A DNA stretch of 64,000 bases from Pyropia yezoensis (lineage: Eukaryota; Rhodophyta; Bangiophyceae; Bangiales; Bangiaceae): positions 19,132,020 through 19,196,019 of the forward strand of contig CM020620.1 of NCBI GenBank assembly GCA_009829735.1, read 5' to 3'. This document shows, piece after piece, positions 11,226 to 61,152 of the stretch (within the stretch, counting starts at the first letter, position 1; every line of letters begins with the position of its first letter). The translations under genes were made by a program, and so were the position numbers. The notes under the pieces were generated by a model that had not been told where the DNA came from, made no database searches, and saw only the letters and a program-made list of their open reading frames with translations.

Positions 11226-11270
11226 TCATTGGGTGTCAGGGGGAGGTGATCCTCGGACCGCCAATTAACC

Positions 11271-17795: not shown

Positions 17796-19739
17796 ATGGC
17801 GACCCCGGGGGTGGAGACGGACTCCCTTGACGAACGTATGGAGGACACCTCCTACAGTGCAGCGCCCGCCGCGACTTCCGGCGGGGGCTCCGCGGATACT
17901 GCGGGGGATGGGACTCCCGCGTCACCCGGCTTTGGGTTGACGGCGGGATCTCCCCCGGAGGCGGGACAAGTTGTCCCGCGTGAGGCCTTGGGGCGGTGGT
18001 TTTACCCCGCTTGGCCTCTGTATGAGGAGGGGTTGACTGTTTTTCGCTCTGGCCGACTTGGCACAGCGATGGGTCGGGTGTGGGACCGCCTACGGGAGAG
18101 GTATCCCCGTAGGGTCGGGTTCTTTGCCGGCTTCAGGACGGACCAGTTTGCCTTCCTGGACGATGAGGAGGTCGAGGACGTACAGCAGGCCAAGGCCATG
18201 GTGGACCGCGGGGGAACTATCCCTGGTCCCGGCGACTTGCCGACCCTTACTTGGGACGCGGTGGCAACTCGCCCCCCGTACCTTCTCGAGGCCGATCCGC
18301 ACACTCATCACTTAGATGTGCGGATGGAGAAGGACTTCCGGCGAGGTCCCTACTTGGTGACCTCGGCTCAACTTGAGTTTCCGCAGCAGTCCGCTGCCAG
18401 TAAGGAGCAGAACTACCCGAAGACGCCCGAGTGGTGGCCTCCAGTTCAGGTCCCCTACGGGTTCCCTGCGTTGCTGCCACATTTGCTCGACCACTTCGGC
18501 TCCGTCATGCTGACGGCTAGCCCAGATCACCTGGTGTGGGCCATGTTGGCCACCCAGTGGCTCCTCGAGGTCATGTCGACCTGGGTGTCCTGTGTCCAGC
18601 GGCGGGGGATGCTCTGGCATCTTCCCCTCCGGCTCATCCAAGGTTTGGAACAGCTCACGCCTCAGCTAGTTGCTGAGGGGTGCTCATCAAGACAACTCAC
18701 TCTACTTGAGAAGATGCTCCGCCTCCACAAGTTTACTGAGTGGGAGAGCATTGAGCACAAGTTGCGCCGCCCCACTCGTGGGCCCAAGGACGATGGCACA
18801 CTTCGCCAGTTCGTATAGGTCGCTCGTGAACTTCACGACGGCCGTGTGGTACTACGAGAGGGGCTGGGCATCGGGGACTACCCGTATGCCCCGGGGGTGG
18901 ATCGCCACACTGCGCCACCCCCGGACAAGGCCAGAGTGATTTCCGTGCCTTCTCATGATGACCACATGACCCAACCCACTGCGGGGGCCCCGAGTAGGGG
19001 TCGCAGTTACACTCGGGCACCGCCACCTCGGCGTGCCCCTTCGCTTCCTCCTGTCCCCTAACAGCCGCACGTGGACATCCCGATAAGCGTGGCCGTTGAG
19101 TCGTCTACCCCGGGGTCCCCCAACTTGGGGGCCACCCTTCTGACGGTTTACCCCAAGTTGGTGTTACCGGCCACGCCTCTGACCTCAGAGATGATAATCA
19201 CCACGTTGGTGCGCACCATTTCTTGGTTGGCCGCGTCAACCGCAACCCTTCAAGTTTCCGAGACTCCTCACCTTGAGGAGCGCGTTCGTACTGCGGTGGC
19301 GACCGCGAGTTTCGAGTCGGTGGCGGAGTTTATGACGGCCAAGTTGGCTCGCATCAGATCTATTGTGCCCCAGCCAGCCCCACTTGGGCGTGGCAAACGT
19401 CGTGCGAGTCGGGCATACTCGCCTCCTCGCCGTCGTCGCCGACGCTCACGGCGTTCTCCCTCCGTGTCGGACAACGAGTTGTCTTACTCCGTCTCGGAGT
19501 CCTCTACTCCATCAAAGTCGGAGTCGGTCCGGCGTCTGCGTCGCCAACTTGCGCGCAATACCAAGCAGAAGGGCAGCCGCGGTTGTCGCCACTCGCGCGA
19601 CCGTGAGGGGCGCGACGGTTCCGACTTGGAGCCGCCGGCCCCGCCGACTGGTGGGGAGCGTTATCGACGTGGGTCTCGCCGCTCGCCTCCACGTGAGGGC
19701 GAGGGCCGTGGGGTTGGACGGTCTAGCATGCATGCCTAG
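17796..19739 (+). pseudogene. Antisense accessory ORF of element A (about 647 codons, two in-frame stops)
   Basis: The ORF opens at GCCATGGCG and runs in one frame to 19739, broken only by TAG at 18816-18818 and TAA at 19059-19061. It lies on the strand opposite to gag-pol, between pol and the 3' LTR, and its end overlaps the pol end by 17 nt. Residues about 205-310 contain YPKTPEWWPPVQVPYGFP, then DHFGSV, then QRRGMLWHLP and a helical stretch ending HKFTEW; each has a counterpart in the antisense ORFs of elements B and C. The C-terminus is Arg/Ser-rich (RRRRRRSRR), fitting nucleic-acid binding or nuclear import. No known domain is recognised. Antisense ORFs in the same place are known in some plant Ty3 (Tat/Ogre) lineages, but I cannot show homology to those. 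Confidence 0.75.
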
Positions 19740-22700
19740 TTGGCAGCTGCCTTTGTTGTGAGAGTGTATGGGTTAGGGCTGTAGTTAAAAGCCTCTCTGC
19801 GTACCACTTCGGCTTTAAGCACTCTCTTGGCACTGTTACTCGGCCTTCCCTCACGTTGAGGGGGGGGCTGTTAGGGTCTATCTCATTCCGGGCACAGTAT
19901 GCCCGGACCTTCTCAGCGGCAAGGTCCTCCACGTACTCCCACGTATCATCCTTGGCCTTATCGCCGAACCAACGCACGCTCAACATGAGGCGGTTGCTGT
20001 CCTCATCCCAGCCGTGGTCGATGAACTTATCGACCACGTACTCCTGCGGGCCCTGTTTGGCCGCAGGCAGCGAGGGGAGGTGCCACGCTTCCAACGCACG
20101 CGCCCAAGCTGGGTCGCCTGTACGCGGTGGTGCAACTTTGACGACGTCCAGTCCGTTTACTGTGCGGACCCCATCGTCACTTTCAATGGTGAAGCGCCGC
20201 CCATCAGTACGAAGGACCTGGTACGGCCCCTTCGTCTTGAATACCAACTTACCCCCAGTTGGGGTGTGTGAGTGAACCAGTACCCAGTCACCCTGCTCGG
20301 GGACATGCTTAGCATTGCGCACCTTTTTGTCAAAAGTACGCTTGTAGCGCTTTTGTGCTCTGTCCATCTCAGCCCTGACTTTAGGGATGAGTTTTTAAAG
20401 CCTAGCAGCGAACTCCGCCTTACTCTCAGTAGGAGTAGGCGTACTGCCACCATCCTCCCTAGTTGGGAGCGGCCGCCGCACGGCAATAGACCGCACGCGA
20501 CGGGGGGTCACAAAAGCGAGGGGTACTTCCCCGGTAGATGAGTGAACCTGCAAATTGTAGGCAGTGGTAAGAATAGAAATGTATTGGTCCCACGTTTTCA
20601 CGTGCTCACTCACATAGTGGCGCAGCTGCCGAACAATAGTTTTGTTGAAGCGCTCCACCTGCCCATTAGTTTGTGGGTGGTAGAGGGTGGCATAGTTTGC
20701 CTTAACCCCCAACATATCCAGCACTCCCTGAAACAGTACAGACGCAAATTGCGGTCCATTGTCCGATAGTGTACTATCCGGAATACCATACGCGGCAACC
20801 CAGTGATCTAGGAAGGCTGGCACGACCGACATGTCCGTGATCTCTGCAAGTGGGATCGCTCGCGTAAGTTTCGTGAAGCGATCGCAGATGACCAGGGGGT
20901 ACTGGTTGCCCTCCTCGGTCACTGGCAGTGGCCCAAGGATGTCCATTGCCAACGTGGCAAAGAGCTCATTGGCCGGGAACAGTAGCATAGCCGTACGAGG
21001 CCGCCGTTCCATCAGACGGTTCTGCGCACAACTTGTGCAGGCAGCCACCCAACTATAGATGTCCACCATAATGGACGGCCAATAGTACCTGGTCCTCAGG
21101 GTCTGTTAGAGTTTACCAGACCCCAGGTGTCCACCTGTGGGAGCGTTATGCTCCCTCTCAAGAATACTGTCCTTGAGGGATGCGGGGACGACAAGTTGTT
21201 CGGTCCCCTGGATTACCCCACTCCTCAAGAGGAGGCCATCGTCTCCGACAAAGGACCGCGTCTCCGCCACTGTATCCAGCGTATCCCTCTGCGACTTGCA
21301 GAAGGGGTCCTTGGCCTGGGCCTTCACCACCTCGTCCAGGGACATGGGCAAGTACTTCTTGTTCCCTGGCGCCTCGGGGTCCAACGCCTGACCCGAGCGC
21401 GTGACTACCCCCACGATGGGGATGTCCTCATCGACTGGGTTAGTGTCCAGCCCCTCGGTAGGTACCCGAGAAAGGCCGTCGGCAAGGGCATGTTGCCTGC
21501 CAGGTCGGTACTCAATATCAAAGTTGAAGGGTGCTAGTCGCACCCACCACCTGTTGAGACGGGTGTTCATGCAATCCGTCTTGAAGGTGAATTGCAACGC
21601 TCGCTGGTCACAGCGGACGAGGAACTTCTCACCCTTCAGGTAGTGACGAAGTGACGTCACCGCCCACACCATTGCGAGTCCTTCCAACTGGGTGACTCCG
21701 TAGTTCTTCTCAGCCGAGTTCAGCCCCTTGCTGAAGTATCCCACCGGCAAGCACTCCTTGTCCGGCTGCTGCTGAAGCAACACACAACCAAGTTGGTCGT
21801 AGCTAGCGTCCACGTCCAGGATGTAGTGGCCTCCCAACCTGGGAACAGCCAAGATAGGGGGCTTCAGCAGAACGTCCCGAAGAGTCTCAAAGGACTCCTG
21901 CTCCACCCGACTTGGGGGAGGCAGGTTCTTCGGTAGCGTTGAGCTAACTAGCTCGTTCAATGGCTTCGCCACCTTGGCGAAGCCCTTAGTGAAACGTCGG
22001 TACACGTTACACATCCCGAGGAAGCTTCTCATCTGGGTCTGGGTCCGGGTGTACTGAGCCTTACGTGGGGCCCTCAAGTTTTTCTCGTTGACACTGAGAC
22101 GCCCCGGACGGACAACATGTCCCAAGTATTCCACCTCTTGAGTGAAGAGGTGGCACTTACTCGCCTTCAGTGACACACCGGCGTCAGCAAGTAGCTTGAA
22201 CACCTGGCCAAGATGGCCAATGTGTTCCTCCGGACTTCGGGACATCACAGTGATATCGTCTAGGTACACGAGACAGATCTGCCACCGTACTCCGGCCAGA
22301 ATCATGTCCATAGCGCGCTGGAAAGTTGCCGGCGCGTTGCACAGTCCAAACGGTAGTCGCTCGCACTGGTAGGTACCACAGTGACAGGTAAAGGTAGTTC
22401 TGTGCCTGTCATCCGGGGCAATGGGAATTTGCCAGTACCCCGCGTTACAGTCCAGGGTAGAGAACACGATTGCCTCCCCCAGAGAGTCCAGACAGTCGTC
22501 CATCCTAGGTAGGGGATAACTGTCCTTCACCGTACTCTCGTTGAGCTTACGGTAGTCGATACGGAACCGAGGAGTCCCATCAACTTTGGGGACGATAACC
22601 ACCGGACTCGCCCACTCGGCGTTGCTGGCCTCGATCACATCGAGGGCCTCCATGCGAGCGACTTGCTCCTTAACGAGGGCCCTTGAACGGGGCCTCCCCT

Positions 22701-23843
22701 GTACGGTTGTTGGCGTATAGAAGTTGCACCGGGTTTCAACTCGATCCGGTGTTGGGTGGCTCTCATGAGTACCAATTGACCATCCCACAACTTGTGATAT
22801 TGGTCCAAGAGGCGTTCAACTTGAACCCTCAACTTGGGTGGAGCACCCTCCATGTTCACATGGGGCCGAGGAGAGGCGGCCGCCTTGGCTTAGTGCTTCT
22901 CCTTTCCAGACTTCGAGTCGCTACTTGCGCCCGCAATGAGGGTGTCCGCTACTACCGGTCCCTTATGTTGGTCGATATTGCCGAACTTGGCTCCCGACTT
23001 GAAGTACTTGGGCGACGAGCTCAGGTTCATAACCTGGATCCTCCACGGGACTCCGGCTTTGGAGTCCATCGTGCCAAGGGCAACATGCACTTGGTGCTTG
23101 CGAGCAAGACGGGGGTGAGGGTGCACCAACCCGTTCCCCGTATAATCAGCTACAATGTGAACGTGCGCCACCGAGTTGGGGGGCAACGTGACTTTACGGG
23201 CTAAACGCAGGGTAGCAGTAAACCCTTCTCTCACAGAGCAAACAAGCTTCGACTGTGAGACTGTCACAGGAGCCACAGACTTTCCCTTACCAAGGATGGG
23301 GATGGTCTCCCCATTTATCAACTTGACCCAATACTCAGGGCCACAAATCAAAGGCACTTGTGTTACAACATAAGGGGTACCCAGAAGCAGGGGTACCGAT
23401 ATATTCTCGACTACTCCATAGGTCACGTCGACCTCATGGGTTCCCAACCTAGTCGGTAGGGTCACGGCACCAACGATGGGAAGTACCCCACCATTGATGT
23501 CGATCAGATGGTCAGCTTCAGACCTCCAGCGTAGGAGCTTCATCTCCTTTGGTAATCGCGACTTGCGTATCAAAGAGGCTCCTGACCCGGTATCAAGTAC
23601 GATACGGGCACAGCAGGCACGGCCGGGGGCAAGTTGCACCCGTCCAGCCACCTGGAAGTTGGCACCCGTCAGCACCGCGATGACCCGACGTGGGTTTACG
23701 TTCTTGGGGAGTCCTACCCGAGGTGGGCGGACTCCCTTAGGTCGCCGCAGTATCCGGCACGGTTGGTTCGTCCTCTTGACCCACTTGGCCGAGGCTGCCG
23801 TTGTGAGCTTAGAACGGCCAGCTCCAACGGTCATTCGTTTCCC
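19723..23843 (-). pseudogene. pol of element A: protease, RT, RNase H, integrase, chromodomain; degenerate
   Basis: Reading from the -1 slip site near 23840: protease (LDTGSGASLI, near 23600), RT with YLDD (near 22260), RNase H (DVDASYDQLGC, near 21800; NYGVTQLEGLAMVW), integrase zinc region and core (MDILGPLP near 20935, SDNGPQF near 20755, NGQVERFNKT near 20650), and a chromodomain (YVVDKFIDHGWDEDSNR...WFGDKAKDDTWE, near 20030-19900). Breaks are an in-frame stop at 22890-22892, a frameshift near 22700, and stops at 21106-21108 and 20395-20397. All catalytic motifs are still readable, so decay is recent. The chromodomain suggests chromatin-guided integration as known for chromoviruses. Confidence 0.88.
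23798..23843 (-). promoter_or_regulatory. -1 frameshift signal of element A: GGGAAAC plus hairpin
   Basis: The heptamer G GGA AAC (23837-23843) sits in the gag frame two codons before the gag stop (AAC GAA TGA). After a 6-nt spacer, CCGTTG pairs with CAACGG and, inside, GAGCT pairs with AGCTC. The pol frame is the -1 frame of gag, as required. Confidence 0.8.
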
Positions 23844-24474
23844 GCCGACTTCTCGTCGGAATCCGAGGGCGAAGGGGAAGACGACGAGTCCGAGGACGAC
23901 GTGTCCGCCCCCTCCGCCGAAGGTGTGGCGACCGCCACTACCGGTCGATGTCCACCCTCGCGGCGTGACCGTACTTCGTTCGTAGCCGACTTTCTATTCG
24001 CATTCTTAACAAGTTGTTGAACGCGTTTACTCAACTTGGGGCAATCATATGCCCAGTGTCCATCGGAGTTGCAGTTCCAACACCGATTGTCAGTTCCCGG
24101 AGGGGTCTTCCCGACTAGGGAAGACGAAGAGGTACCCTCGGAAGTTCCCACGGCAGCCACTACCCTCTCCTTGCGGATTCGGCGTGCCTCTCTCAGCTCT
24201 CTGGCCTGGCGTGCCTCCTCGCGTTCCTTGGCCAACTCGGCCTGACGCTCCTGGCGCTGTTCCTCCCGCAACTTGCGGTAGGCCTCACCTCTGCGGTAGA
24301 CGAACATAGCCAACTCGGCAAGGGTCGCCCGGGCAGTGTTATGCTCCCGGGTCTCCATCCGGACTGACCAATGGAGTCCCTCCACGAACCGACTCTTCAC
24401 CACAGCTTGTGATTGAAGAAACCCACAAAGATTGTTGAGCTTACAAACCCGCTCCGCAAAATACAACTCGTCCT
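23831..24474 (-). pseudogene. gag of element A, C-terminal part
   Basis: This part carries the CCHC knuckle CWNCNSDGHWAYDC (near 24020-24060), a charged Arg/Glu-rich helix upstream (REEARQARELREARRIRKE) and an acidic Ser-rich tail ending SAGNE. It was split from its N-terminal part (34127-35434) by element B. Ignoring B and one copy of the 5-bp duplication, the frame runs through the junction without interruption, so gag was open when B arrived. Confidence 0.88.
24470..24474. other. Target-site duplication of element B, left copy
   Basis: GTCCT directly precedes the left LTR of B and is repeated at 34127-34131 after the right LTR. Five bp is usual for Ty3/gypsy integrases. Confidence 0.93.
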
Positions 24475-25045
24475 TGTAGCATCCCTGGCCCCGACTTGGC
24501 GCCGACCCGGGACTGCAACCAGAGGGCACCAGGTGCCAGAACACGCCCGCCGTGTGGTGATGGTTGGCGGCCGTGGCCCGTGCCCGGCACTGGGATGCGG
24601 TGGACTACGCTATCCACACGTGAGAGAGGGATTTCCGATGGGTTTTTGCATACATGTGAGAGACTTGATTTGAGAGAATTTGAATGTGAGATTAGTGAGT
24701 GGGAATAGAATTAGTAGTGATAGTGGCCCCCGACCTGACGAGGTTAGACTCGGGTCGGGGCCACTCGAGGTTATGGGGGGGCTACCTGGCCAACGTGCCG
24801 AGGCTCCCCCAGATGCACCTTAAGAGGGACAGTGAGGCGCCCTTGGCCCGCGCCCTCGGGAAAAAGACAACTGCGCGTTTGCTTTCCTCTTCCCCGTGTG
24901 CACTACCGTGCGTATCTGTTTGCTCTGCGAGCAGGCACGTGAGGCAACAGGCATACCATTCTCGTGGTTCCCCTTTCTGTGATACCTGTCCCTTTCCCCC
25001 GAGGGATACTGACACGTGTCTGAGAGGATCGAGTTTTATACCACA
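24475..25045 (+). repeat. 5' LTR of element B
   Basis: 571 bp, nearly identical to 33556-34126. The primer binding site follows four bases later, which makes this the 5' LTR. It carries an inverted pair around 24727-24765 (GGCCCCCGACCTGACG ... CGGGTCGGGGCC) that could form a strong hairpin in the transcript. Confidence 0.94.
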
Positions 25046-25067: not shown

Positions 25068-25254
25068 TAGGAGTGTTTGAGAGGAGACATTTGGGAGCAG
25101 CGGTTGGGTTGTTCCTGTTCTGTCTTTTTCTGTGGTTTGGGAAGTATTTGCACCCGTTCACGGGAATCCCATTCCTGGCTCCCCAACCCCTCTCTTGTGG
25201 TCTTGCGATCTTTGGACACGCAGGCAACTGGACTGTGGCTGTCAAGAGACCAAC

Positions 25255-27015
25255 ATGGCTACCCTCCCTGGCACGACGGTGCCCGAAGAGGTAGACCCCG
25301 CGTCCCTTGACGCATCCCTGGTCACCGCGGGGGACGGTGCCCAACCCGGCGCTCTCCCTACGGGTGAAGCAGACCTCGCTGTGACATCCGGTAGCGGACT
25401 GGAGTCTACAGGCGGCCAAGTACCTCCTGCTCCCGTTCCTCCGGCTGTTCCTCCTGTGGGAGCCACCCCGGGGTCAACGGCGTTTGAGTCCGCTCGCAGC
25501 AGACGTCTCCCTCCTGTCGGTTCTACTCCTCAACCTCCAGGGATAGCCCCTGGTGTGTTTACTTCTGGACCCACACACGGCAGCTGGGTATACACACCTC
25601 TTCCTGTGGGCACTAGCAGTGCCAGAGGCACCGCTGTAACTGGTTCTACGGGTCACCCTGAGACATCGACTCCTGGGACCGGCCAAGCTTTTCCTCCCCT
25701 TGCCTCCTATGGGGCGGGGAGCTCCAAGACCGGTAACCGGAGCAGCCGGAGGCGTCGGCGTCGTCGCCGTCGCTCTAGCACCAGCGAGACCAGTTCCTCC
25801 AGCTCTGAGGAGGGATATGACTGGGACGCATCTCCTGGTCCCACCCGGCGCAGGCTAGTCGAGTTTGACTTCCCTGCCCACCAAGTGGGAGATGCCACCC
25901 TGAACAAGGTCACGTACTGGGGAAACTACCGGCTGGAGAACCAAGACCAAGGTTACACCCGGAAGATGGCCAAGAAGATGGCATCCCTGAACCGGCGAAT
26001 GCAGCCGAGCTTCGGGGGACATCCTAAGTTTTCCGGGAAGAGACCGGCGCTTATCTTTGCCTTCCTGCGCCGGTTCGTCAAGGCATGCAACGACAACGAT
26101 GTGTCCGAGGGCAAGGCTCTCTACCTCCTGGTTAACTTCATGACCGGAGAAGCGGAACAACGGTTTGCACAGGTTCTACCAGACTCTGCCGGACACATTG
26201 TCGGGCGTACCGTGGGGAGCTATCCGGAGGCGGTCAACTGGCTCCTGTCCAACTACGCTGACGCGGACTCCCTGCGCAAAGCAGTCGGCAGGTTGAACCG
26301 GGCAACCATGGAGCGACAAGAGACTCCAGAGGCCTTCGCCCGTCGTGTCCGGGAGATGAGCGAGGCTTGTGGCAACGTCTACCCTGAGGACAGGCTCAAG
26401 ATGATCTTCTCGGAAGGGCTTCCTGAATATCTTCAAGTGGACTCGGAGAACTACAACCAGGAACATCAAGAACATACCTTCCAGCAGTTGATGGCCTACA
26501 CCCAGGGCAAGTACCGGCAAGCCAAGGCCCTCCAAGCTCCCATGGTATCAACTCCCAAGCCGATGTCGCGAGTTCGTCCCGGACCCGACAAGTATAAGGG
26601 AGGTGATAGCCCTGTACCAGTACTCGCAGTTGGTGAGGCCTCACCCATGGGATCAGGGGACAAGTGGGGCGGCTTCGTTTCTAAGGAGCAACCTTCCCTG
26701 GTCGCCCCCAAGCAGGTCAGGAACCAGCGGTTCCGGTCTTGTTGGCTGTGCCAGAAGGAGGATCACATGTCCTACCAGTGCCCGACAATTCCCAAGGACC
26801 TCCAGGAGAAACTCAAGCGTCAAGGACTGGTGTTTGCAAAGGCGGTCAACTGGGCTGACCGGCGAGCACCCATCAAGATGGACAGGGCACAGGTTCACGC
26901 AATCCGGGTGGCAACCTTGCAGAGCATCACGGAGGCTCTGGCAAGGGAAGCTCCTACGGATTTTGACCTGGAGACCGAGACCTCTAAGGACTCCTCGGAC
27001 CCGGGAAACGAGTAG
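25255..27015 (+). CDS. gag polyprotein of element B
   Basis: 586 aa. The first ATG after the leader is at 25255 (MATLPGTTVPEE). The N-terminal 200 residues are Pro/Ser/Thr-rich with an Arg run (RRRRRRRRSS), followed by a retrotransposon gag core (HPKFSGKRPALIFAFLRR ... NDNDVSEGKALYLLVNF, about 26020-26140) and a CCHC nucleic-acid-binding knuckle CWLCQKEDHMSYQC (about 26741-26782). The gag core resembles those of A and E in the K-A-C-[ND]-D-N segment. It assembles the particle that packages the element RNA. It ends DPGNE; the last codons form the frameshift site that gives Gag-Pol. No stop or indel interrupts it. Confidence 0.92.
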   Translation: MATLPGTTVPEEVDPASLDASLVTAGDGAQPGALPTGEADLAVTSGSGLESTGGQVPPAPVPPAVPPVGATPGSTAFESARSRRLPPVGSTPQPPGIAPGVFTSGPTHGSWVYTPLPVGTSSARGTAVTGSTGHPETSTPGTGQAFPPLASYGAGSSKTGNRSSRRRRRRRRRSSTSETSSSSSEEGYDWDASPGPTRRRLVEFDFPAHQVGDATLNKVTYWGNYRLENQDQGYTRKMAKKMASLNRRMQPSFGGHPKFSGKRPALIFAFLRRFVKACNDNDVSEGKALYLLVNFMTGEAEQRFAQVLPDSAGHIVGRTVGSYPEAVNWLLSNYADADSLRKAVGRLNRATMERQETPEAFARRVREMSEACGNVYPEDRLKMIFSEGLPEYLQVDSENYNQEHQEHTFQQLMAYTQGKYRQAKALQAPMVSTPKPMSRVRPGPDKYKGGDSPVPVLAVGEASPMGSGDKWGGFVSKEQPSLVAPKQVRNQRFRSCWLCQKEDHMSYQCPTIPKDLQEKLKRQGLVFAKAVNWADRRAPIKMDRAQVHAIRVATLQSITEALAREAPTDFDLETETSKDSSDPGNE

Positions 27016-27028: not shown

Positions 27029-30000
27029 CCCAAGTGTCATCCCTGATCTCCGACGGCAGGGTACTTCTACCCGTTCTCCCCTTGCGTGCCGGGAGAAAGG
27101 ACGGCAGTTACCTGCTCAACTGGTAGCCGCCTGGACACCCTGTTTGTTCAAGGGGACCTTGCTTGTCCTGCGTAAGGACAACCTCGAGATTAATGCTCGT
27201 ATGCGTGTGGGGGATAGCCTCCCCCAAGCTGTTACGCCGGTGGTTGACACGGGAGCCGGACCAAGCGTCATCACTGAGAACCTGTTACCTCCGGATTGGC
27301 GCCGACATGCCTGGAGAGCGCCTACCCGGACCCATATCGTCGACGCTTCGGGTCAAACCCTACGACCGCTTGGCCGTCTTCCCGTCGCCATCTATGTCAA
27401 CAATGAACCAATGCTTTTTCCCTTTCTAGTAGTCAAGACTCTATCAGTCCCCCTCATCCTAGGCTGGGACTTCCAGAAGCAGCATGTCAAGAGTATCCGG
27501 CCCGGAGAAGGAAAGGTGCAGTTTAACCATGGGTTTGTGTCACCAGTGCTGGAGCACCTGGACGCCAAGGATCGTGTGGTCAAGAACGAGAAGGAACGCA
27601 TCCCACCCTCTACCTTGACTCTCTTCAAACCGGTGCTCCTACCTCCTCGCTCGGAGACCAAGGTTCAAGTAACGACCCGAACTGCAGGTCAATGCCTGAT
27701 CTACGGACGTAAGGAATTTCTGGCAAAACACCAGTTATACTTGGCCCACGGACATCACAAGAAGGTGGAGAGGCACACCCCGTTCTCGGTGCTGATCGTC
27801 AACGTGAGCTGGAAGCCAATAACCCTCGCCAAGGGCACCCGAGTTGGTACAGCAGAGCCTTACCGGGGGTCCGCCCGAGCTATGAGCAAGGAAGACCTCT
27901 TGAATCTGCAACAAGAACTGGCATCCAACCTGTCGGCCCTGGACGTACCTCCGAAACAAGAGCAGGTTGGCAGCGACCCTCCGAAGCCCGAACAAGCACC
28001 ACCCGGGATGCCGACGGTCAAGCAAGAAAATGTTCCTCCCGACTTGAAGGAGGCACTGGAGAAGCTTCTCCAGGAATATCGGCACCTGTGGTCTGGAGAG
28101 CTGGGCAAGATGGACGCTACTCTACACCGGATTCAACTCAAGCCGGGTGCCAAGCCAGTACACCTGCAACCATACCGGGCTGGACCTCATCGCCGGGATG
28201 AGATTGAGAAGCAGGTTAACAAGATGCTCAAGATGGATGTTATCGAGCCGTCTGATGGCGAGTGGGCCTTCCCGGTGGTAGTCGTCCCAAAACCTGGCGG
28301 TCACTTCCGTTTCTGCGTTGACTACAGACGCCTGAACGAGATGACAGTCAAGGATGTATACCCGATACCCCGGATGGATGATTGCATCGACTTTCTTGGT
28401 GATGCCACCCTCTTCTCGACGCTGGATTGTAATGCCGGTTACTGGCAGATCCCTCTGGCCGACGAGGACAAGGACAAGACTACCTTCACGCGCCACCTGG
28501 GACTATTCCGGTGCAAGCGTCTTCCTTTTGGCCTCACCAATGCTCCGGCAACCTTCCAGAGAGCCATCGACATCATCCTGTCAGGGCCAAGGTGGAGAAC
28601 ATGTTTGGTCTACCTGGACGATAATATCGTTTTCTCCAAGACCCCGGCGGAACACCTGGAGCACCTCCGAGAGGTCCTGGATCTCCTGTCCAAGGCTGGA
28701 GTTACCCTGAAGGCCGAGAAGTGCCACCTGTTTGAGACTGAGGTGGAGTACCTGGGGCACGTGCTGAGTCCGGGGGAGCTCCGAGTCAATGAGAAGAACA
28801 TCAAGGCCCTCCGGCATGCACGGCAATCTAAGACCCAGACGGAACTCAAGAGCATCCTGGGTATGTGCAACGTTTACCGCCGGTTCGTAAGGGACTACGC
28901 CCTGGTTGCTCGGCCATTGACCAAGCTCACCAGCAAGAAGCTCCCCGCACAACTCCCGGTGTTCGACGAGAAGCAGACCGCGGCTTTCGAAGAGCTCAAG
29001 AAGCGCCTGACCACAACTCCAGTACTGGCGTTACCCAAGCGGGAGGGCCAGTTTGTCTTGGAGACTGATGCCTGTGGCGTCCAGGTGGGGTGCTCTCTAC
29101 TCCAGCAGCAACCTGATGGGCACTTCCTCCCGATAGGCTACTACAGCCGCGTCCTGACTCCAGCTGAGAAGAATTATTCCACGACGGAACGCGAGTGCTT
29201 GGCGGTCGTCTGGGCTTGCTTCCTGTTACGCCCATATCTCGAGGGACAAGAGTTCCTCATCCGGACGGATCACGCCAGCCTAAGGTGGCTGCTCTGTATG
29301 GACAGCAGCCAAGGAAGGGTCGCCCGGTGGCGCCTACGCCTTTCAGAATTCAAGTACAAGGTGTGCACCAGAGCAGGGAGGGAGCACCACTGCGCCGACA
29401 CCATGTCCCGGCTGGAGACTCCTGCAGCCGACACCGGTCCTATCCCGGAGGAAATACCTTGTTTCATCCTCCCGAATGTCGGACGTGGCTGGCATGCTCC
29501 CCTGTATGAGACACCTGAAGCTCATCAACCGGTGACAATTCACCGGATGCTGGAGGCACAACTGACGGATCCTCAATGCTTGGAGCTTCGTCACCAGATG
29601 GACCTGAACCGGAACAGTTGCTTCTCCGAGTCTACAGACGGACTCCTGGTACGGGTGTCACCCTTCGATGGGGCAACTCAAGTCTACGTACCCCGGAGTC
29701 TACGGGCTGACATCCTCCGCCTGGAGCACTCGTCTCCCCAGGCCGGACACCCTGGCATCAACCGGATGTATGCATCAATGCGACGACATTATTACTGGGA
29801 AACCATGGCCAGTGACGTTCATAAGCACTTGGAGGCTTGTGTCTCTTGTGCGAGGAACCGGTTGTCCCAGAGGAAGAAGACTTCTAAGCTACGCCTATTT
29901 CCAGCGGCGGAGCCCTTTGCAAGTTTAAGCATGGACATCCTGGGGCCCTTACCTGAAACATCCAGTGGCAACATATACCTGCTCATCATCTGTGACCGGT

Positions 30001-31103
30001 TTTCCAAGTTTACTCGAGCAATCCCGCTGAGGACCATTACGGCCCTGGATGTTACGTCAGCCTTTTGCGAGTACTGGATAGCTGCCTACGGCCCTCCAGA
30101 CTCCGTCTTGACGGACAATGGCCCCCAGTTTGCATCCCTGTTCTTCCAAGGAGTCTGTGACCAGATGGGTATCAAGAACTTGTTCACCACGACGTATCAC
30201 CCACAAATGAACGGCCAGGTGGAACGATTCAATCGGACTCTGGTGAACATGCTACGGCACTACGTGGAGGAGCATCAAGAAGACTGGGACGAACTTCTGG
30301 CTGTCCTCACGCTAGCCTACAACTCCCGAGTTCACCAGACAACGGGGGTCGCTCCACTCGACTTTGTCACCCCAAGGCGGCTGACCAACTTCTCCCTGGA
30401 AAGAATACCAGACGGTCTCCAGCCTGCACTGAAGTCATGTCCCAAGGCAAAGGATGGGTTCCTGGAACAACTGAATCTCCTGCTCCCAAGAGTCAAGGAG
30501 TCAATATCAAAGACCCAGGAGCGATACAAGCGGGAGTACAACAAAGGAGGCCCTGAAAAGAACAAGGAACTGGGTGGTGGCGACTGGGTTTTTGTAGACA
30601 ACCATAGCAAGACCCGGGGGAAGCTGGACTCTAAGACGGATGGACCTTATGAGATCCTGAATACGGATGGCTGGACCTTTCTCCTAGACGTGGGTGGCTC
30701 CGCGTACCGGGTGAGCAGCGACCACGTCACCCGAGCTCCACCGCCAAGCAAACGGGACTTGACCCGGCGCAAGCGGGCCGCAGTACCCTGGCTATCCCAA
30801 GAAGAAGGCCGGGAATATGTCCACGTCAAGTTTGTCGACCATGCCTGGAGGAGCGGGCGCTTGTACCTGCGAGTACGCTGGTTCGGTTTTAACCCGGCAG
30901 ATGATACCTGGGAGCCCTCAAGCCGGTTACCCATCGCGGACGTCTGCGCCTACACGCGACGGAACGGGATTGAGGGCACTCCGGTGGCCAGAGCCGGCAA
31001 GATCCTGGAATCGGACTCGGAGGAGGACCAGGAGGAAGGGGCTGATCAAGACCCACGGGACGAGCCGAGCTCACCCGCAATGGACGCGGAACAAGAGGAG
31101 TGA
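27003..31103 (+). CDS. pol polyprotein of element B: protease, RT, RNase H, integrase, chromodomain
   Basis: The frame is open from the slip site to 31103, so it is probably made as a Gag-Pol fusion; an in-frame ATG-type start is not required. Order: aspartic protease (VVDTGAGPSVI, near 27240); RT (STLDCNAGYWQIPL near 28420, LPFGLTNAPATFQRA, YLDD near 28611); RNase H (ETDACGVQVGC near 29060, TTERECLAVVWA near 29180, RTDHASLRWLL); integrase zinc region (H...H...CVSCARNR, near 29730-29860) and D-D-E core (MDILGPLP near 29931, LTDNGPQF near 30110, GQVERFN near 30215); and a C-terminal chromodomain (YVHVKFVDHAWRSGRLYLR...DDTWEP, near 30817-30915). All expected catalytic residues are there and nothing is broken, so the element could be mobile. 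Confidence 0.95.
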   Translation, partial: GKRVEQALSPSVIPDLRRQGTSTRSPLACREKGRQLPAQLVAAWTPCLFKGTLLVLRKDNLEINARMRVGDSLPQAVTPVVDTGAGPSVITENLLPPDWRRHAWRAPTRTHIVDASGQTLRPLGRLPVAIYVNNEPMLFPFLVVKTLSVPLILGWDFQKQHVKSIRPGEGKVQFNHGFVSPVLEHLDAKDRVVKNEKERIPPSTLTLFKPVLLPPRSETKVQVTTRTAGQCLIYGRKEFLAKHQLYLAHGHHKKVERHTPFSVLIVNVSWKPITLAKGTRVGTAEPYRGSARAMSKEDLLNLQQELASNLSALDVPPKQEQVGSDPPKPEQAPPGMPTVKQENVPPDLKEALEKLLQEYRHLWSGELGKMDATLHRIQLKPGAKPVHLQPYRAGPHRRDEIEKQVNKMLKMDVIEPSDGEWAFPVVVVPKPGGHFRFCVDYRRLNEMTVKDVYPIPRMDDCIDFLGDATLFSTLDCNAGYWQIPLADEDKDKTTFTRHLGLFRCKRLPFGLTNAPATFQRAIDIILSGPRWRTCLVYLDDNIVFSKTPAEHLEHLREVLDLLSKAGVTLKAEKCHLFETEVEYLGHVLSPGELRVNEKNIKALRHARQSKTQTELKSILGMCNVYRRFVRDYALVARPLTKLTSKKLPAQLPVFDEKQTAAFEELKKRLTTTPVLALPKREGQFVLETDACGVQVGCSLLQQQPDGHFLPIGYYSRVLTPAEKNYSTTERECLAVVWACFLLRPYLEGQEFLIRTDHASLRWLLCMDSSQGRVARWRLRLSEFKYKVCTRAGREHHCADTMSRLETPAADTGPIPEEIPCFILPNVGRGWHAPLYETPEAHQPVTIHRMLEAQLTDPQCLELRHQMDLNRNSCFSESTDGLLVRVSPFDGATQVYVPRSLRADILRLEHSSPQAGHPGINRMYASMRRHYYWETMASDVHKHLEACVSCARNRLSQRKKTSKLRLFPAAEPFASLSMDILGPLPETSSGNIYLLIICDRFSKFTRAIPLRTITALDVTSAFCEYWIAAYGPPDSVLTDNGPQFASLFFQGVCDQMGIKNLFTTTYHPQMNGQVERFNRTLVNMLRHYVEEHQEDWDELLAVLTLAYNSRVHQTTGVAPLDFVTPRRLTNFSLERIPDGLQPALKSCPKAKDGFLEQLNLLLPRVKESISKTQERYKREYNKGGPEKNKELGGGDWVFVDNHSKTRGKLDSKTDGPYEILNTDGWTFLLDVGGSAYRVSSDHVTRAPPPSKRDLTRRKRAAVPWLSQEEGREYVHVKFVDHAWRSGRLYLRVRWFGFNPADDTWEPSSRLPIADVCAYTRRNGIEGTPVARAGKILESDSEEDQEEGADQDPRDEPSSPAMDAEQEE

Positions 31104-31248
31104 GAAGAAGGGAACGGGTGTATCAAGGAAAACACGCAATGCAAGCATGGAACTACCAAGAAAAACAAGCACCCGCTCGAGCAACCCTTCTCTCCGCCTC
31201 TTCCCTCCTCGCTTCTCCCAAGACTCTCACCCTCCTTGCCTCCAAGTA

Positions 31249-33366
31249 CTACTCCCGGCGCGGACGCTGCGCCGCGGGAGCGTCCTCCAGCGCTGCCTCC
31301 GCGGCACGAAGGGAACCGGAGGAAGGCGAAATGACGTAGTGCGGTGGACGCGGTGCATCCCGGTATGACGCCATCGGAGTAGTACCGGTAGTTGCCGGGC
31401 GCTCCCGCCCATCCAGATATGCCTGCCGGCGGCTCTGGAAGCCAGTGAAGGTCTCTGACCACTGCTGGGCCAAGCCATGCCGCGTCAAAGTCGCCAGAAG
31501 TTCGCCAACCACCGGGCTGTCCGACATCTGGCCGCTGTCCGCGCAAGCAAACACCCGGTCAACCACGTTGTTCAAGACGCTGGCGTCAGTACCCAGCACC
31601 AGGGAAGACCCGACGCCTTCAACATGCACCGGAAGACGGCCCAGCTGGTCTTCAATCATACCGACGTCGTACTGGTCGCATGTCGGGCCACCTTGGTTCA
31701 GGTACCAGTCAGGCACCCGGAAGCGGGTAAGGCGCAGAGTCGGCGCCGGGATCTCGATCCGCCCCGAGGATGCCACTACCGGACGGTCCACAACAGCCCC
31801 AGAAACCGGAGTCCCCAACTCAAGAAGAGGTACAGGACCACCGACAGTTGAAGAAGGTACCCGAGGAAGAACGGCCGGAGTGGTCGGCGACCGGACGGCC
31901 ACGCCAAGACTCGCTGCGGACAATCGCGGTGCCGGAGGAGCTTGAAGCACCGGCACGGACGGAGCAAAACGCAAACGCGCCGGCGACGGTTCAGGCGAAG
32001 CCACCGAGGCGACAGGGGCAACAGGAGGAAGCGGAGCCGCCGCAGACGCCCGACCAACCGCTGCGGCCCAACCCGACTCTTGTACCGGCGGCCCAGTTGG
32101 CAGGAGATCAAGGGCGACCGGAGCAGGAAAGCCGCCTAGCTGCGGCCACTCCGGAAGCGGCGTCGCCAGCTGCACCTTGGCCGGAGAAGACTGGTAGACC
32201 ACCTGCACCCAACCGGAGCCATCCCGACGCGGGCTATTCTGGTCGGCGATCGCGTTCAGGAAGCTCCGGTCCTGCACCGGCAAACGACGCCGGAAGTCGA
32301 TCATCGCCTGCAAGAGCTCCTTGTACTCCTCGTCCTGGCTGCACAAGAAGTCAACGGTCAGCTTGTCAACAATCCAGACCATCAGGAGGTCGGGGAGAAA
32401 CCAAAGCCGGTTGGACACTAAGACCTCGTGGAGCCAGTGGTTGGCCGCCAAGACCGTCAACTCAGAGGTGTACATCATGTACGGGATCGAGTGGAAGAAG
32501 CCCTTGATCGACGCCTGGGTCAAGGCGTCCAAGAAGTACCAGGTGAAGGGGATGCTGGATGGGGCAAACCCGACTGGAATCTCGACTTCCTGCTGCTGCG
32601 GGATGACCTTGGGGTAGTACGCCGCCCGGTTGGCCTTGTCCAGCTTCCAGAACTCCTGATGGTTGCAGCTCACGATGAAGTCACGCTGGCGGCCGCGTCG
32701 CTCACCTTGCTCCCGCGCCGGCGACAGCTTGGAGTACTTCCGGGTCAGGAAAGGCGGCTCCAGAGCGACCATGCTCGGACGGGGATCGCAGTTCAGGCTC
32801 CCCGACCCCTTGAGCGCCTCGTCCCAGACCTTGAGCGCCCGGTGGACGTACCCTTCCTCCTCTGGCCACCGGAGAACGGACGCGGACACGCGACGCTCGG
32901 TCAAGGGTAGATCCAGCACCAGCGCGAAGGAGAGATCCTCCAGACGAGCAACCCAAGAGGAACCTGAAAAGCTCTGGGAGCGGTCTTGTGCCAGGCGCAT
33001 CTGGTCCGCCGTATGAAGGCGAGTCTTGTCCATCTCGGCCAAGACCCCGCGCTGGAGTTCCTTGCGCCAGATGTCCGAGCAATCCTGTTGGCACTGGGCC
33101 GCGCTGGCGTTGCCGACCACCGTGGAGTAGCGCCGGCCCGCCAGAGGATCCTGCCCAAGAAGCATCTCCGGGAGACCCACCGGGGGGGTCTCGACCGGGT
33201 GCAACGCGGAAGCCGGGGGAACCCGATCCGTCCACGCCGTGGCGACCGGCGCCGGCATCGACACCCGAGGAACCGCAGGCAGGAGAAGGGCGCGACCACC
33301 CCAGTTCTCCTCCCAAACACTCGCCGCCGGAACCACGGGCCCAGCTTGGATCTCGGACCTGGACAT
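31249..33366 (-). CDS. Antisense accessory ORF of element B (705 aa, intact)
   Basis: It lies on the strand opposite to gag-pol, tail-to-tail with pol (146 nt apart) and about 190 nt inside the 3' LTR. I take the ATG at 33364-33366 (MSRSEIQAGP) as the start. The centre reads AYYPKVIPQQQEVEIPVGF, then LTVLAANHWLHEVLVSNRLWFLP, followed by a long amphipathic helical region; the YPK...V-P-x-GF block, the WLxEV block and the L-[FW]-[HF]-LP block line up with the ORF in element A. A Pro/Ala-rich linker is followed by a second helical block (DRVFACADSG...LLATLTRHGL) that resembles the C-terminal parts in A and C. No signal peptide, obvious membrane span or known domain is recognised. Its being open for 705 codons in an intact element supports function. 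Confidence 0.8.
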   Translation of the reverse strand: MSRSEIQAGPVVPAASVWEENWGGRALLLPAVPRVSMPAPVATAWTDRVPPASALHPVETPPVGLPEMLLGQDPLAGRRYSTVVGNASAAQCQQDCSDIWRKELQRGVLAEMDKTRLHTADQMRLAQDRSQSFSGSSWVARLEDLSFALVLDLPLTERRVSASVLRWPEEEGYVHRALKVWDEALKGSGSLNCDPRPSMVALEPPFLTRKYSKLSPAREQGERRGRQRDFIVSCNHQEFWKLDKANRAAYYPKVIPQQQEVEIPVGFAPSSIPFTWYFLDALTQASIKGFFHSIPYMMYTSELTVLAANHWLHEVLVSNRLWFLPDLLMVWIVDKLTVDFLCSQDEEYKELLQAMIDFRRRLPVQDRSFLNAIADQNSPRRDGSGWVQVVYQSSPAKVQLATPLPEWPQLGGFPAPVALDLLPTGPPVQESGWAAAVGRASAAAPLPPVAPVASVASPEPSPARLRFAPSVPVLQAPPAPRLSAASLGVAVRSPTTPAVLPRVPSSTVGGPVPLLELGTPVSGAVVDRPVVASSGRIEIPAPTLRLTRFRVPDWYLNQGGPTCDQYDVGMIEDQLGRLPVHVEGVGSSLVLGTDASVLNNVVDRVFACADSGQMSDSPVVGELLATLTRHGLAQQWSETFTGFQSRRQAYLDGRERPATTGTTPMASYRDAPRPPHYVISPSSGSLRAAEAALEDAPAAQRPRRE

Positions 33367-33540
33367 GACGTCCAGAATCCGGGGGGGGGGCAAGAGGGCC
33401 AAGGTGAAGGAGAAAGGGGGGGGGAACGGAATCGGAGCAGGTGATCGTACCCGGGGTGAAGACGCTCGACCTCGGCACCGGTGTGGACATGCTCGAGGCT
33501 GTGCACGGTGGCACCTGGTTCGGCCCGAGGACGTGCCGGA

Positions 33541-33555
33541 CTAGGGAGGGAGCTA
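33541..33555 (+). other. Polypurine tract of element B
   Basis: CTAGGGAGGGAGCTA directly before the 3' LTR is purine-rich and in the expected place for plus-strand priming. Confidence 0.65.
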
Positions 33556-34126
33556 TGTAGCATCCCTGGCCCCGACTTGGCGCCGACCCGGGACTGCAAC
33601 CAGAGGGCACCAGGTGCCAGAACACGCCCGCCGTGTGGTGATGGTTGGCGGCCGTGGCCCGTGCCCGGCACTGGGATGCGGTGGACTACGCTATCCACAC
33701 GTGAGAGAGGGATTTCCGATGGGATTTTGCATACTGGTGAGAGACTTGATTTGAGAGAATTTGAGTGTGAGATTAGTGAGTGGGAATAGAATTAGTAGTG
33801 ATAGTGGCCCCCGACCTGACGAGGTTAGACTCGGGTCGGGGCCACTCGGGGTTATGGGGGGGCTACCTGGCCAACGTGCCGAGGCTCCCCCAGATGCACC
33901 TTAAGAGGGACAGCGAGGCGCCCTTGGCCCGCGCCCTCGGGAAAAAGACAACTGCGCGTTTGCTTTCCTCTTCCCCGTGTGCACTACCGTGCGTATCTGT
34001 TTGCTCTGCGAGCAGGCACGTGAGGCAACAGGCATACCATTCTCGTAGTTCCCCTTTCTGTGTTACCTGTCCCTTTCCCCCGAGGGATATTGACACGTGT
34101 CTGAGAGGATCGAGTTTTATACCACA
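33556..34126 (+). repeat. 3' LTR of element B
   Basis: 571 bp, equal in length to the 5' LTR, with differences for example at GGGATTTTGCATACTGG versus GGGTTTTTGCATACATG. It is followed by the GTCCT duplication. The antisense ORF starts about 190 nt inside it, so an antisense promoter here could drive that ORF (inference). Confidence 0.94.
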
Positions 34127-34131
34127 GTCCT
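34127..34131. other. Target-site duplication of element B, right copy
   Basis: GTCCT, matching 24470-24474, at the start of the resumed gag of element A. Confidence 0.93.
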
Positions 34132-35434
34132 CAGCCTCTTCTTGGTGCGCTTGGGTAAACTCCTCAACTTGAGAAGCCAACGCTGCTTCATCCAGCATGG
34201 CTCTCAACAACCAGTTGACGAGCTCCAAATAGGACGTTACCTCACCAGCGCCTCCACTCGAGAAACTGGGCATGACGGACATAAGATCTGTCCGGAGGTC
34301 GCGCTTCGTAAACTCCTGTAGCATGTAGAACGCCATGCGTTCACCTATGGCATTGTCGTCACAGGCTTTTGTGAAACGACGTAGAAACTCAAAGACACGG
34401 AGGGGGGGAGTTCCATCCCACTCCGCTTTGTGCCCAAAAGAGTGAAGTGCATTCTTCTTGGCACGGCCCATGGCTCGGGCCTGGACAGGACCGTACGCCA
34501 CCGACTTGTTGTGGAGGGCGTAGGTCTCACAATCAAAGATCCTCTGGTAGACCGGGTTGGCTACCTGGATCTTGGGCGGCACGTCACGTTGAGGGAACAG
34601 CCGCTGTGGCACTGGGGTAATTTGACCCTCAGTGCCTGTAGTCTGGCGCGGCGAGCTTGGTGTAGCCGCCGGCGTTTCCGAAGGGAACTCCCCCGTGAGG
34701 GGCGTACATCCCACCGAGAATGGTGCGGCTCCCTCGTTGGGAGTCACAGGGGTCGCCCCCTGTTCGGGGCGACCCGAGATAGGCGTGAGGAGGGATTCCC
34801 CCTGCGCCTGCGGGCTCGAAAGCCCCAATCTGGTCTGGACATTAAGACCATCTGGCAAACTCGCCACAATCTCATTCAGAATAGTAATCGTCATCGTGAC
34901 CACCAGGTCCGGCAAAGTCTGCCGCAACACATTGGTGGCCTCCCGACGGACAGTTTCCGCGAGGAGTGGATGGTCGACTCCAGTTGAGTCTCGGTCCGCC
35001 TCCGGGAGTCCACCTGAGGGGTAACCACGTTCCTCAGGGGTCTCAACCGGGGGCATGGGCGCGAGCCCATCGCCGACCAACGGAGGTCCGCCGTCCTCCG
35101 AAAGCCTATTTGGCGACGGCTCCGAGCCAAAGTTGGTTCCAACCCGAGTGGAACCCGCCGGGACAGTCCTCTCGCCTTGGGACATTCCCGTTGATTGTAC
35201 CACACGGTGGCCAGACTTCGACCCACCCACATCAGAAGTGTCACCCGAATGAACTCCCGACTGAGTCGGGGTGGCATGTTGCCCGCCCGCACTTCCAGTC
35301 CTGCTGGCTTGAGGGACCCCTAGTCCCTCTGCGACCCCAGGTAAACCCACCTGTGTCTCACCAGTATTCAAAGGCACTGAAGTACGTGCGTCACCCGTGT
35401 ACTCCCCAAACGACGGGGGGTCCGAACCGGCCAT
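34127..35434 (-). pseudogene. gag of element A, N-terminal part
   Basis: It starts at ATG 35434 (MAGSDPPSFGEY), about 100 nt after the primer binding site. The gag core is IFDCETYALHNKSVAYG, then AEWDGTPPLRVFEFLRRF, then KACDDN, near 34560-34340. It stays open up to the insertion of B (...EEAED), and its C-terminal part is at 23831-24474. The core is closely related to the gag of element E (63480-63750) and more distantly to that of B. Confidence 0.88.
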
Positions 35435-35533
35435 GTTGGCTAACGATCCGTATGACACGGTCCAAGTACACCGTTCCTCTGAGACAGAGGGCCCCCTACA
35501 CCCGGGTGCACCCGGAGGTAAAGGTTACCTCTG

Positions 35534-35551: not shown

Positions 35552-35553
35552 AA

Positions 35554-36022
35554 TGTGGCAAAAACCTCTCGCACACGCGACACCCAAGTTGGGGCGGTGT
35601 ACAAGGGCTGCCTACCGTGTCGGGGGAGCCGGAAGAAGTGCAAGTCGCACACACTCTATCCCTGTTGTGGGGCAATCCCCCCACTGACAAACAAGAAGAT
35701 GGTGTGTGGTCCAACAGTTTCTTGGTCGGGACGGGGAAGCAAGGCCAAGCCCTGATGTCCCTCCCCTTATCCCCCGAGGGTCCCCTCGGAATCTCGCCGC
35801 TCAGAATCTCCCACCCGAGCACCTGCCCACCGGGCCACACGAAAATTCAAGACGATAAATGCAGAAAACCCTCAAATCCACGTTGGGTTTACTACTAAGC
35901 TAACTATCCCAAACTTAGGGAATATGGCCCCAAATGCAGGGGGAGGAACGGGTCAGGCTAGTAGCCTGCCGCCCCTTGCGTGGCACGTGTTGCCCCCCTG
36001 CCTTGGGGTCAATACTGCCACA
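35554..36022 (-). repeat. 5' LTR of element A
   Basis: 469 bp, TG...CA ends, paired with 16988-17456; the primer binding site is next to it. The sequence after 36022 (GACAGCTTCT) is not the continuation of the retrotransposon interrupted at 16987. Confidence 0.92.
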
Positions 36023-60946: not shown

Positions 60947-61152
60947 AGTCACAATCAGTCAACCGACGTAACAATCACCACGAATAAGAGAGCGAGGGGG
61001 TAGATTGGGGAGAGTAACAGTAGATCACAGTCACAGGTAAAAGCTCAACACAATCGATCAGGTTGCAACACCACGAGTACAAGAAAAGGACCGGATCCCT
61101 ATCCGTGTGCCAGGGCCGAAGACGGCGTCACCACAAGGGTGACGGAAACCCG

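What the first reader, a model, noticed from the sequence alone, without database searches (positions are those of the whole stretch)
31249..33366. A conserved long antisense gene shared by three different Ty3/gypsy elements
Seen: A (17796-19739), B (31249-33366) and C (51869-54078) each carry an ORF of about 650-740 codons on the strand opposite to gag-pol, always between pol and the 3' LTR. The three proteins share, in order, YP[KD]...V-P-x-x-[FL], FGSV (A and C), R-x-x-x-L-[FW]-[HF]-LP, a following amphipathic stretch and a second C-terminal helical block, although LTRs and much of pol differ. In B it is fully intact. Known: antisense ORFs in this position occur in some plant Tat/Ogre elements; I know of no such family with these motifs. 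Inference: a lineage-specific accessory protein with its own promoter, possibly affecting packaging, silencing or integration.
Basis: partly seen in the sequence, partly recalled or inferred. Interest (0 to 1): 0.88.

Follow-up and report, generated by a model that had tools for sequence, protein, structure and literature searches.

The report
Antisense third gene in algal retrotransposons
Three families of jumping genes in what is probably a red alga each carry, read backwards between their enzyme gene and their right end, a related long gene that evolution has kept intact, so it very probably makes a protein these elements use, although what that protein does is not yet known.

Summary
A, B and C are Ty3/gypsy elements (chromodomain clear in A and B) with unrelated LTRs, one shared primer site and reverse transcriptases 46-51% identical. 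Each carries a 650-740-codon gene on the opposite strand between pol and the 3' LTR. B's copy is intact; here A's has two stops and C's a frameshift, but open copies exist. A ~110-residue core is significant for A-B and A-C (0 of 1000 shuffles), weaker for B-C (3 of 1000).

It evolves as protein: omega 0.28 (B), 0.15 (A), 0.21 (C second half; first half 0.54), against 0.23-0.28 for pol and integrase. In 20 B copies one indel falls in 2,118 bases of gene, 38 in 177 bases upstream. The start codon is fixed in 20 of 20 B and 20 of 20 A copies.

No Pfam, PDB, viral or prokaryotic relative was found, nor the Transposase_28 domain of plant Retand antisense genes. The arrangement is known (Grande, RIRE2, Retand, Boty); this protein family and its setting appear new. 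A nuclear regulatory role is my best guess, not shown. Aside: A and C, not B, hold excess palindromes.

The parts
31249..33366 (-). B antisense gene, intact, 705 codons from the conserved ATG
   Evidence: ORF; ATG conserved in 20 of 20 fetched copies; omega 0.281
24475..25045 (+). B 5' LTR
   Evidence: 98.4% identical to 33556-34126; TSD GTCCT
33556..34126 (+). B 3' LTR
25132..27015 (+). B gag, zinc knuckle weak
   Evidence: zf-CCHC E 0.015, below Pfam cut-off
27144..31103 (+). B pol: PR, RT, RNase H, integrase, C-terminal chromodomain
   Evidence: Pfam; chromodomain match to an HP1-type chain, E 3.6e-6
31104..31248 (.). 145-bp spacer between the convergent stops of pol and the antisense gene in B
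33367..33555 (.). B region upstream of the antisense ATG, rich in indels, with the polypurine tract at the LTR edge
   Evidence: 38 pairwise indel events over 20 copies in 33367-33543, against 1 in the gene
17796..19739 (+). A antisense gene, in-frame stops at 18816 and 19059 in this copy; R/S-rich C-terminus
   Evidence: relatives without stops: P0002 and 74 of 76 scored genome copies
16988..17456 (-). A 3' LTR
   Evidence: 97.4% identical to 35554-36022
35554..36022 (-). A 5' LTR
19723..24474 (-). A pol region (broken): chromodomain 19723-20367, integrase 20395-21069, RT-RNase H 21106-22788
   Evidence: Pfam; chromodomain match to an HP1 chain, E 1.4e-4
34127..35458 (-). A gag, interrupted by insertion of element B
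17773..17793 (.). 21-bp palindrome just before the A antisense ATG; its common form occurs 762 times in the genome
51869..54078 (+). C antisense gene, one frameshift near 53086-53139 in this copy
   Evidence: many other copies with open frames over 800 codons
50914..51276 (-). C 3' LTR
   Evidence: 97.8% identical to 61172-61534
61172..61534 (-). C 5' LTR
54581..60952 (-). C gag-pol, in several ORFs; marginal chromodomain at the C-terminus
   Evidence: Pfam; Chromo only E 0.099

Best explanation
SHOWN: the antisense ORF behaves as a real protein-coding gene, kept by purifying selection, and as a standing third gene of three Ty3/gypsy families of this genome (chromodomain clear in two). It reads from a fixed ATG near the 3' LTR towards the end of pol. 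INFERRED: it is transcribed separately from the minus strand. It makes a soluble protein with low-complexity regions and a conserved, probably helical core, which acts as a regulatory accessory factor in the nucleus (transcription, silencing escape or integration of its own family), as has been proposed for the plant Grande and Retand antisense genes. Probabilities: selected protein-coding gene 0.95; common origin of the three genes 0.9; nuclear regulator rather than a structural, packaging or self-limiting role about 0.45.
For: Omega by codon model: B 0.281 (21 copies with the window's), A 0.153 (20), C second half 0.214 (10), C first half 0.537 (10); B pol 0.246 (16), A RT-RNase H 0.234 (14), A integrase 0.279 (16 loci, 13 distinct). 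Variants shared by two or more copies: pN/pS 0.19 (B), 0.10 (A), 0.18 (C second half) with no stops; singletons, mostly post-insertion, 0.53, 0.32, 0.22 with 6, 2, 0 stops. On shared variants only the antisense frame and its mirror frame on the other strand, which shares the wobble position but is full of stops, score below 1. One indel event in the gene over 20 B copies, 38 in 177 bp upstream. ATG fixed in 20 of 20 B and 20 of 20 A. Pol end adjacent in 20 of 20 B loci, integrase in 19 of 20 A loci. Homology of cores. For a nuclear role only soft evidence: no transmembrane segment in any, R/S-rich C-terminus in A and a basic cluster in C, none in B.
Against: No transcript, protein, localisation or binding data. 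AlphaFold2 models are poor (mean pLDDT 34.9 and 38.7), so the helical core is a guess. B lacks a basic cluster. No promoter motif is shared. Copies were chosen from lists ranked by similarity of the antisense protein itself, which lowers omega somewhat. C's first half is only weakly constrained (shared variants 0.53, one shared stop), and in C's second half singletons score as low as shared variants, so the internal contrast fails there. B-C homology is not significant by profile alone.
Confidence: 0.55

Rival explanations
1. A structural or packaging partner: the protein works with Gag in particle assembly or RNA packaging and is antisense only by history.
For: No transmembrane segment; selection about as strong as on pol.
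Against: No similarity to the gag proteins by profile comparison (probability 0.1%, E 0.53); a minus-strand message cannot be part of the genomic RNA, so dosage would be uncoupled from Gag (inference).
Confidence: 0.2
2. A self-limiting factor: the protein or the convergent transcript restrains the element (copy-number control).
For: Convergent arrangement, the antisense ORF facing pol and in A overlapping its end; dsRNA models are discussed in PMC7264820 (passages seen).
Against: The families reach high copy number (primer site shared by the three families, 2,559 matches; A palindrome, 762 matches). Selection at the protein level says that RNA alone is not the reason the ORF is kept.
Confidence: 0.15
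3. A far-diverged relative of the plant Retand/Grande antisense proteins (Transposase_28 and kin), inherited from a common ancestor.
For: Same position, strand and proposed role (PMC11963269 and PMC7264820, passages seen).
Against: No Transposase_28 match in the ORFs at E<=1 or in their cores at E<=10, none in the whole genome at E<=10 (its control genomes gave no hit above the cut-off, so that search has no positive control). Retand is described as a non-chromovirus lineage; A and B carry chromodomains.
Confidence: 0.1
4. Chance or by-product ORF in GC-rich DNA, or a shadow of a sense-strand gene.
For: DNA is about 60-68% GC, which lengthens ORFs; a 245-codon sense ORF overlaps in B.
Against: Other frames score pN/pS of 1.28 or more on shared variants, except the wobble mirror frame, which has a median of 9-24 stops; indels are nearly excluded from the gene but not from the DNA upstream.
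Confidence: 0.02

Closest known systems
Retand/Grande/RIRE2 antisense ORFs of plant Ty3/gypsy elements (aORF-3R; Transposase_28 in Retand)
   Same: Long ORF antisense to gag-pol between pol and 3' LTR, present in most copies, conserved like the other proteins; Grande's is transcribed from its own promoter and nuclear (PMC7264820 and PMC11963269, passages and one section seen)
   Different: No Transposase_28 domain; A and B carry a chromodomain, Retand is a non-chromovirus lineage; no similarity found by the searches made
Boty of Botrytis cinerea (fungal element with antisense ORF)
   Same: Antisense ORF between pol and 3' LTR outside plants (PMC7264820 section 5)
   Different: Its protein was not compared here; no sequence was at hand
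Antisense genes of retroviruses such as HTLV-1 HBZ
   Same: Protein-coding message from the minus strand near the 3' LTR, nuclear regulator (HBZ recalled; an antisense promoter inside the HTLV 3' LTR is mentioned in PMC7264820)
   Different: Analogy only; not compared by sequence
Env-like third genes of plant LTR retrotransposons
   Same: Third gene between pol and 3' LTR
   Different: Those are in sense orientation (PMC7264820); here antisense, and no transmembrane segment by hydropathy

Membership tests
Ty3/gypsy chromovirus | Pol order PR-RT-RNase H-integrase | tested here: met
   Pfam in B pol; RT, RNase H and integrase in that order from separate pieces in A and C
Ty3/gypsy chromovirus | Chromodomain at the integrase C-terminus | tested here: met
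   B: E 3.6e-6 to a solved chromodomain; A: E 1.4e-4; both below Pfam's own cut-off; C only marginal, E 0.099
Ty3/gypsy chromovirus | Placement in the chromovirus clade of a reverse transcriptase tree | not tested
   No tree with reference elements was built
aORF-3R, antisense ORF between pol and 3' LTR | Position and orientation | tested here: met
aORF-3R, antisense ORF between pol and 3' LTR | Present in most copies and conserved like the other proteins | tested here: met
   omega comparable with pol. First-look candidates, not all scored: 569 for B pol end, 544 for the junction, 513 for the antisense core. Of 51 listed B copies with a pol frame of 1,365 codons or more, 30 have the core listed at the exact place; lists stop at 150 rows, so 30 is a lower bound and 'most' rests on the candidate counts
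Retand-type Transposase_28 antisense protein | PF04195 domain | tested here: not met
Retand-type Transposase_28 antisense protein | Non-chromovirus host element | tested here: not met
   chromodomains in A and B
Grande-type antisense gene | Own promoter and nuclear protein | not testable with these tools
   no expression or localisation data
Env-like protein | Transmembrane segment | tested here: not met
   no 19-residue window above Kyte-Doolittle 1.6 in B, P0002, A, C1 or C2

The most novel reading that the evidence does not exclude
A previously undescribed protein family is the ancestral third gene of a red-algal chromodomain-element lineage, arisen independently of the plant antisense genes, and is a positive factor (anti-silencing or integration targeting) that helped these families to reach hundreds to thousands of copies. 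That would make antisense accessory genes a recurrent invention of Ty3/gypsy elements.
Probability: 0.25. Interest if true: 0.8.

Novelty: new variant of a known kind. Interest (0 to 1): 0.62.

Why it matters
Antisense genes of LTR retrotransposons are described mainly from plants (and Boty of fungi) in the papers I saw, and their function is unknown there too. A second set, in chromodomain elements of a distant lineage, with an unrelated protein, many open copies and clear selection on the protein, suggests that a minus-strand accessory gene is something Ty3/gypsy elements gain and keep more than once. The genome is compact and rich in young copies, so the question of what such genes do becomes testable with strand-specific RNA data and simple protein assays.

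Tried and rejected
Chance ORF or sense-strand shadow: rejected. Env-like: rejected for lack of a transmembrane segment. Duplicate of gag: no profile similarity. Transposase_28: none. PDB relatives by profile: only two MazG chains at E 0.27-0.28, taken as chance. Homologues in 5.8 billion proteins: one per query, P0001 (91% to B) and P0002 (90% to A; 100% at one place of this genome), each of the query's own family; a profile search with A1 found only P0002 and missed even P0001, so its reach was poor, and C was never searched on its own. In all three, only the roughly 8,000 candidates sharing most words were scored. Viral and prokaryotic contigs: nothing confirmed. Synonymous codon usage did not single out the antisense frame. 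Structure: two AlphaFold2 jobs gave useless confidence, so no fold search was made. A TATA box as shared promoter: not conserved. A compensatory two-sided change in the palindrome before A's ATG looked promising, but genome-wide it exists only in the window copy (1 of 774; 762 in the common form, 11 mismatched), so it is no evidence for selection. The idea that the palindromes of A and C are self-targets for integration got no support from two nested insertions.

Full report
What is there. The window holds a run of LINE-like repeats (1-17 kb), then element A on the minus strand, with element B inserted in A's gag on the plus strand, and element C on the minus strand. LTR pairs are 97.4%, 98.4% and 97.8% identical, and the three LTRs do not align with one another. 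All three elements use the same primer-binding site, TGGTGGAGCAGCAGGGGA. That 18-mer occurs 2,559 times in the 107,475,971-base genome, with 0 for the reversed control. The genome is in 11 contigs, three of them of 43.6, 34.3 and 29.4 Mb. I take it for Neopyropia (Pyropia) yezoensis; this rests on recalled size and chromosome number and fits passages of PMC7423979 (48% repeats, mostly LTR elements), not on a named record. Pol proteins are 46-51% identical in the long RT-RNase H alignments. A and B have C-terminal chromodomains; C's is marginal.

The antisense ORFs. Each element has one long ORF on the strand opposite to gag-pol, between pol and the 3' LTR. B's is intact. A's frame carries two stops and C's one frameshift in this window, so both copies are broken. 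Relatives are less so: in the own-genome searches 44 of 63 scored B copies, 74 of 76 scored A copies and 120 of 121 scored C copies (second half only) have no stop (counted by eye, the window's B and C copies included). Only the best of 11,816, 3,562 and 2,236 first-look candidates were scored, which favours intact copies.

Are the three related? A core of about 110 residues (YYPK ... P.GF ... FGSV ... LWHLP ... LT) aligns A-B and A-C beyond all of 1000 shuffles, and B-C beyond 997 (A represented by P0002). Profile comparison agrees for A-B (E 9.4e-5) and A-C (2.9e-4) and not for B-C alone (0.12, though in the same register); reversed controls gave 0.46, 0.17 and 0.057. The C-terminal parts are at best weakly related in B and C and not detectably in A. 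Core identity is 24-29% to A, well below the 46-51% of RT, so the antisense gene seems to evolve faster between families, while within B the core is 96-100% identical in the 150 scored of 513 candidates.

Is it a gene? I fetched 20 of 63 B hits, 20 of 76 A hits and 10 of 121 C hits. For pol I used 16 of 20 B loci (L009, L012, L015, L027 dropped as incomplete); for A, 14 of 20 (RT-RNase H) and 16 of 20 (integrase, 13 distinct). All 14 A RT-RNase H rows carry an indel, and 13 of 14 a stop, against the window copy's frame, so that comparison is a little noisy. Codon-model omega: antisense B 0.281, A 0.153, C first half 0.537, C second half 0.214; B pol 0.246, A RT-RNase H 0.234, A integrase 0.279. 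Pooled pairwise Nei-Gojobori ratios agree (0.30, 0.11, 0.59, 0.21; B pol 0.18, A RT-RNase H 0.17, A integrase 0.15). Splitting variants gives an internal control: those shared by two or more copies, which mostly arose while the lineage was active, have pN/pS 0.19, 0.10 and 0.18 and no stops in B, A and C second half; C's first half has 0.53 with one stop. Singletons, mostly gained after insertion, have 0.53, 0.32, 0.22 and 0.64, with 6, 2, 0 and 0 stops. The contrast is clear in B and A, not in C. On shared variants other frames give 1.28-4.23, except the mirror frame that shares the wobble base (0.19-0.25), which has a median of 9-24 stops (B, A, C second half). In B, one indel event falls in the 2,118-bp gene over 20 copies, against 38 in the 177 bp between the ATG and the polypurine tract (pairwise against the window copy, so shared events count repeatedly), 0 in the 145-bp spacer and 1 in the last 204 bp of pol. 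The ATG sits exactly at that boundary, in 20 of 20 B and 20 of 20 A copies. I read this as strong evidence for translation from that ATG.

Is it part of the element? All 20 B loci carry the end of B pol at the expected place, and 19 of 20 A loci carry A integrase (L029 does not). In reverse, one search lists 51 B copies with a pol frame of 1,365 codons or more. I entered 50 of them (C3:24626959 left out by oversight; by eye it is in neither core list): 29 have the antisense core at the exact offset among the 150 listed, 30 with a second list. So 30 of 51; the other 21 may lie beyond the list limit or may lack it, which I could not tell.

What it might do. The proteins have no transmembrane segment, no Pfam match except a sub-threshold DUF641 hit in A's C-terminal half (E 0.015), and no convincing PDB relative. 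A ends in an R/S-rich basic stretch and C has a basic cluster; B has none by the same rule. AlphaFold2 gave mean pLDDT 34.9 and 38.7; both models put helices on the core, but at this confidence that is no evidence. A nuclear regulatory role is therefore an inference from analogy: in Grande the antisense gene has its own promoter and a nuclear product, and Retand antisense proteins are proposed to be regulators (PMC7264820 passages and section 5; PMC11963269 passages). Function is unknown there too.

What is known. The anatomy is known from plants and from Boty of fungi. The plant survey PMC6317226 has no occurrence of 'antisense', 'aORF' or 'additional ORF' in its main text, and reports chromoviruses but no non-chromoviruses in algae (passages). 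Six library searches showed 20 of 55, 25 of 26, 20 of 190, 15 of 609, 5 of 6 and 12 of 22 papers; none of those shown is, by title and opening abstract, on antisense genes in red-algal elements. Subscription journals are not in that library. Transposase_28 is absent from the ORFs and from the whole genome at E up to 10. So the element type and arrangement are known, and the protein family and its setting look new.

Side finding. Element C is full of perfect even-centred inverted repeats: 57 with arms of 7 or more in 50914-61534, five of them from a tandem repeat at 54437-54502; 49 have G at -3 and 49 have C at +3. In its coding pieces 44 are seen where codon shuffles that keep the protein give about 4; odd-centred ones are also in excess, 11 against about 2.6. 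A has odd-centred ones (10 against about 1.4; even 2 against 2) with a CAASTTG-like centre; B has no clear excess (even 4 against 2.3, odd 2 against 2.1). The arms have no evident common sequence. The LINE-like stretch 1-16980 also has an excess (30 against 8.5), but it holds three copies of one unit; the stretch 36023-50913 has none (3 against 2.6). In C, arms have fewer shared variants than the rest (0.077 against 0.138) but about as many singletons (0.066 against 0.077); in A the difference is small (0.053 against 0.067). I have no explanation; it does not track the antisense gene, since B has the gene and no excess.

Limits.

Noticed in passing
50914-61534 (element C) and 16988-24474 with 34127-36022 (element A): Large excess of perfect inverted repeats of arbitrary arm sequence, mostly even-centred with GNNNNC in C (44 in coding pieces against about 4 in synonymous shuffles), odd-centred with a CAASTTG-like centre in A (10 against about 1.4), no clear excess in B; also in the fetched copies of A and C. 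Cause unknown: selection, template switching in reverse transcription, or protein binding.
   Followed up: partly
17773-17793: 21-bp palindrome (common form CTCTCCCCAACTTGGGGAGAG) directly before the A antisense ATG; 762 exact copies of the common form in the genome, not each checked for position. Its CCAASTTGG core also lies in A's LTRs (17018, 17312, 35584), elsewhere in A (19120, 19153, 19339, 21788) and upstream of the D gag (62424, 62556): 10 in the window against 0.72 expected. Possibly an operator.
   Followed up: partly
G000:C1:602950-611532 and 833537-840540: Runs of primer-site matches in the same direction spaced about 1.7 kb (first run) and 2.0-2.9 kb (second run), suggesting tandem or short non-autonomous elements.
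   Followed up: no
63151-64000: Gag of an A-like element D (58% identical to A gag over 105 residues) cut by a B-family LTR at 63758, as A's gag is cut by element B.
   Followed up: no
L015:1-2810 and L009:3054-4170: A C-family element nested in B pol, and a roughly 1.1-kb insert bounded by A-type LTR sequence in B pol with TSD ATATT.
   Followed up: partly
1-17000: Three near-tandem copies of a very GC-rich (about 69-79%) LINE-like unit, start-to-start about 7.35 kb.
   Followed up: no
54437-54502: Short tandem repeat with a unit of about 24 bp between the C antisense gene and pol.
   Followed up: no
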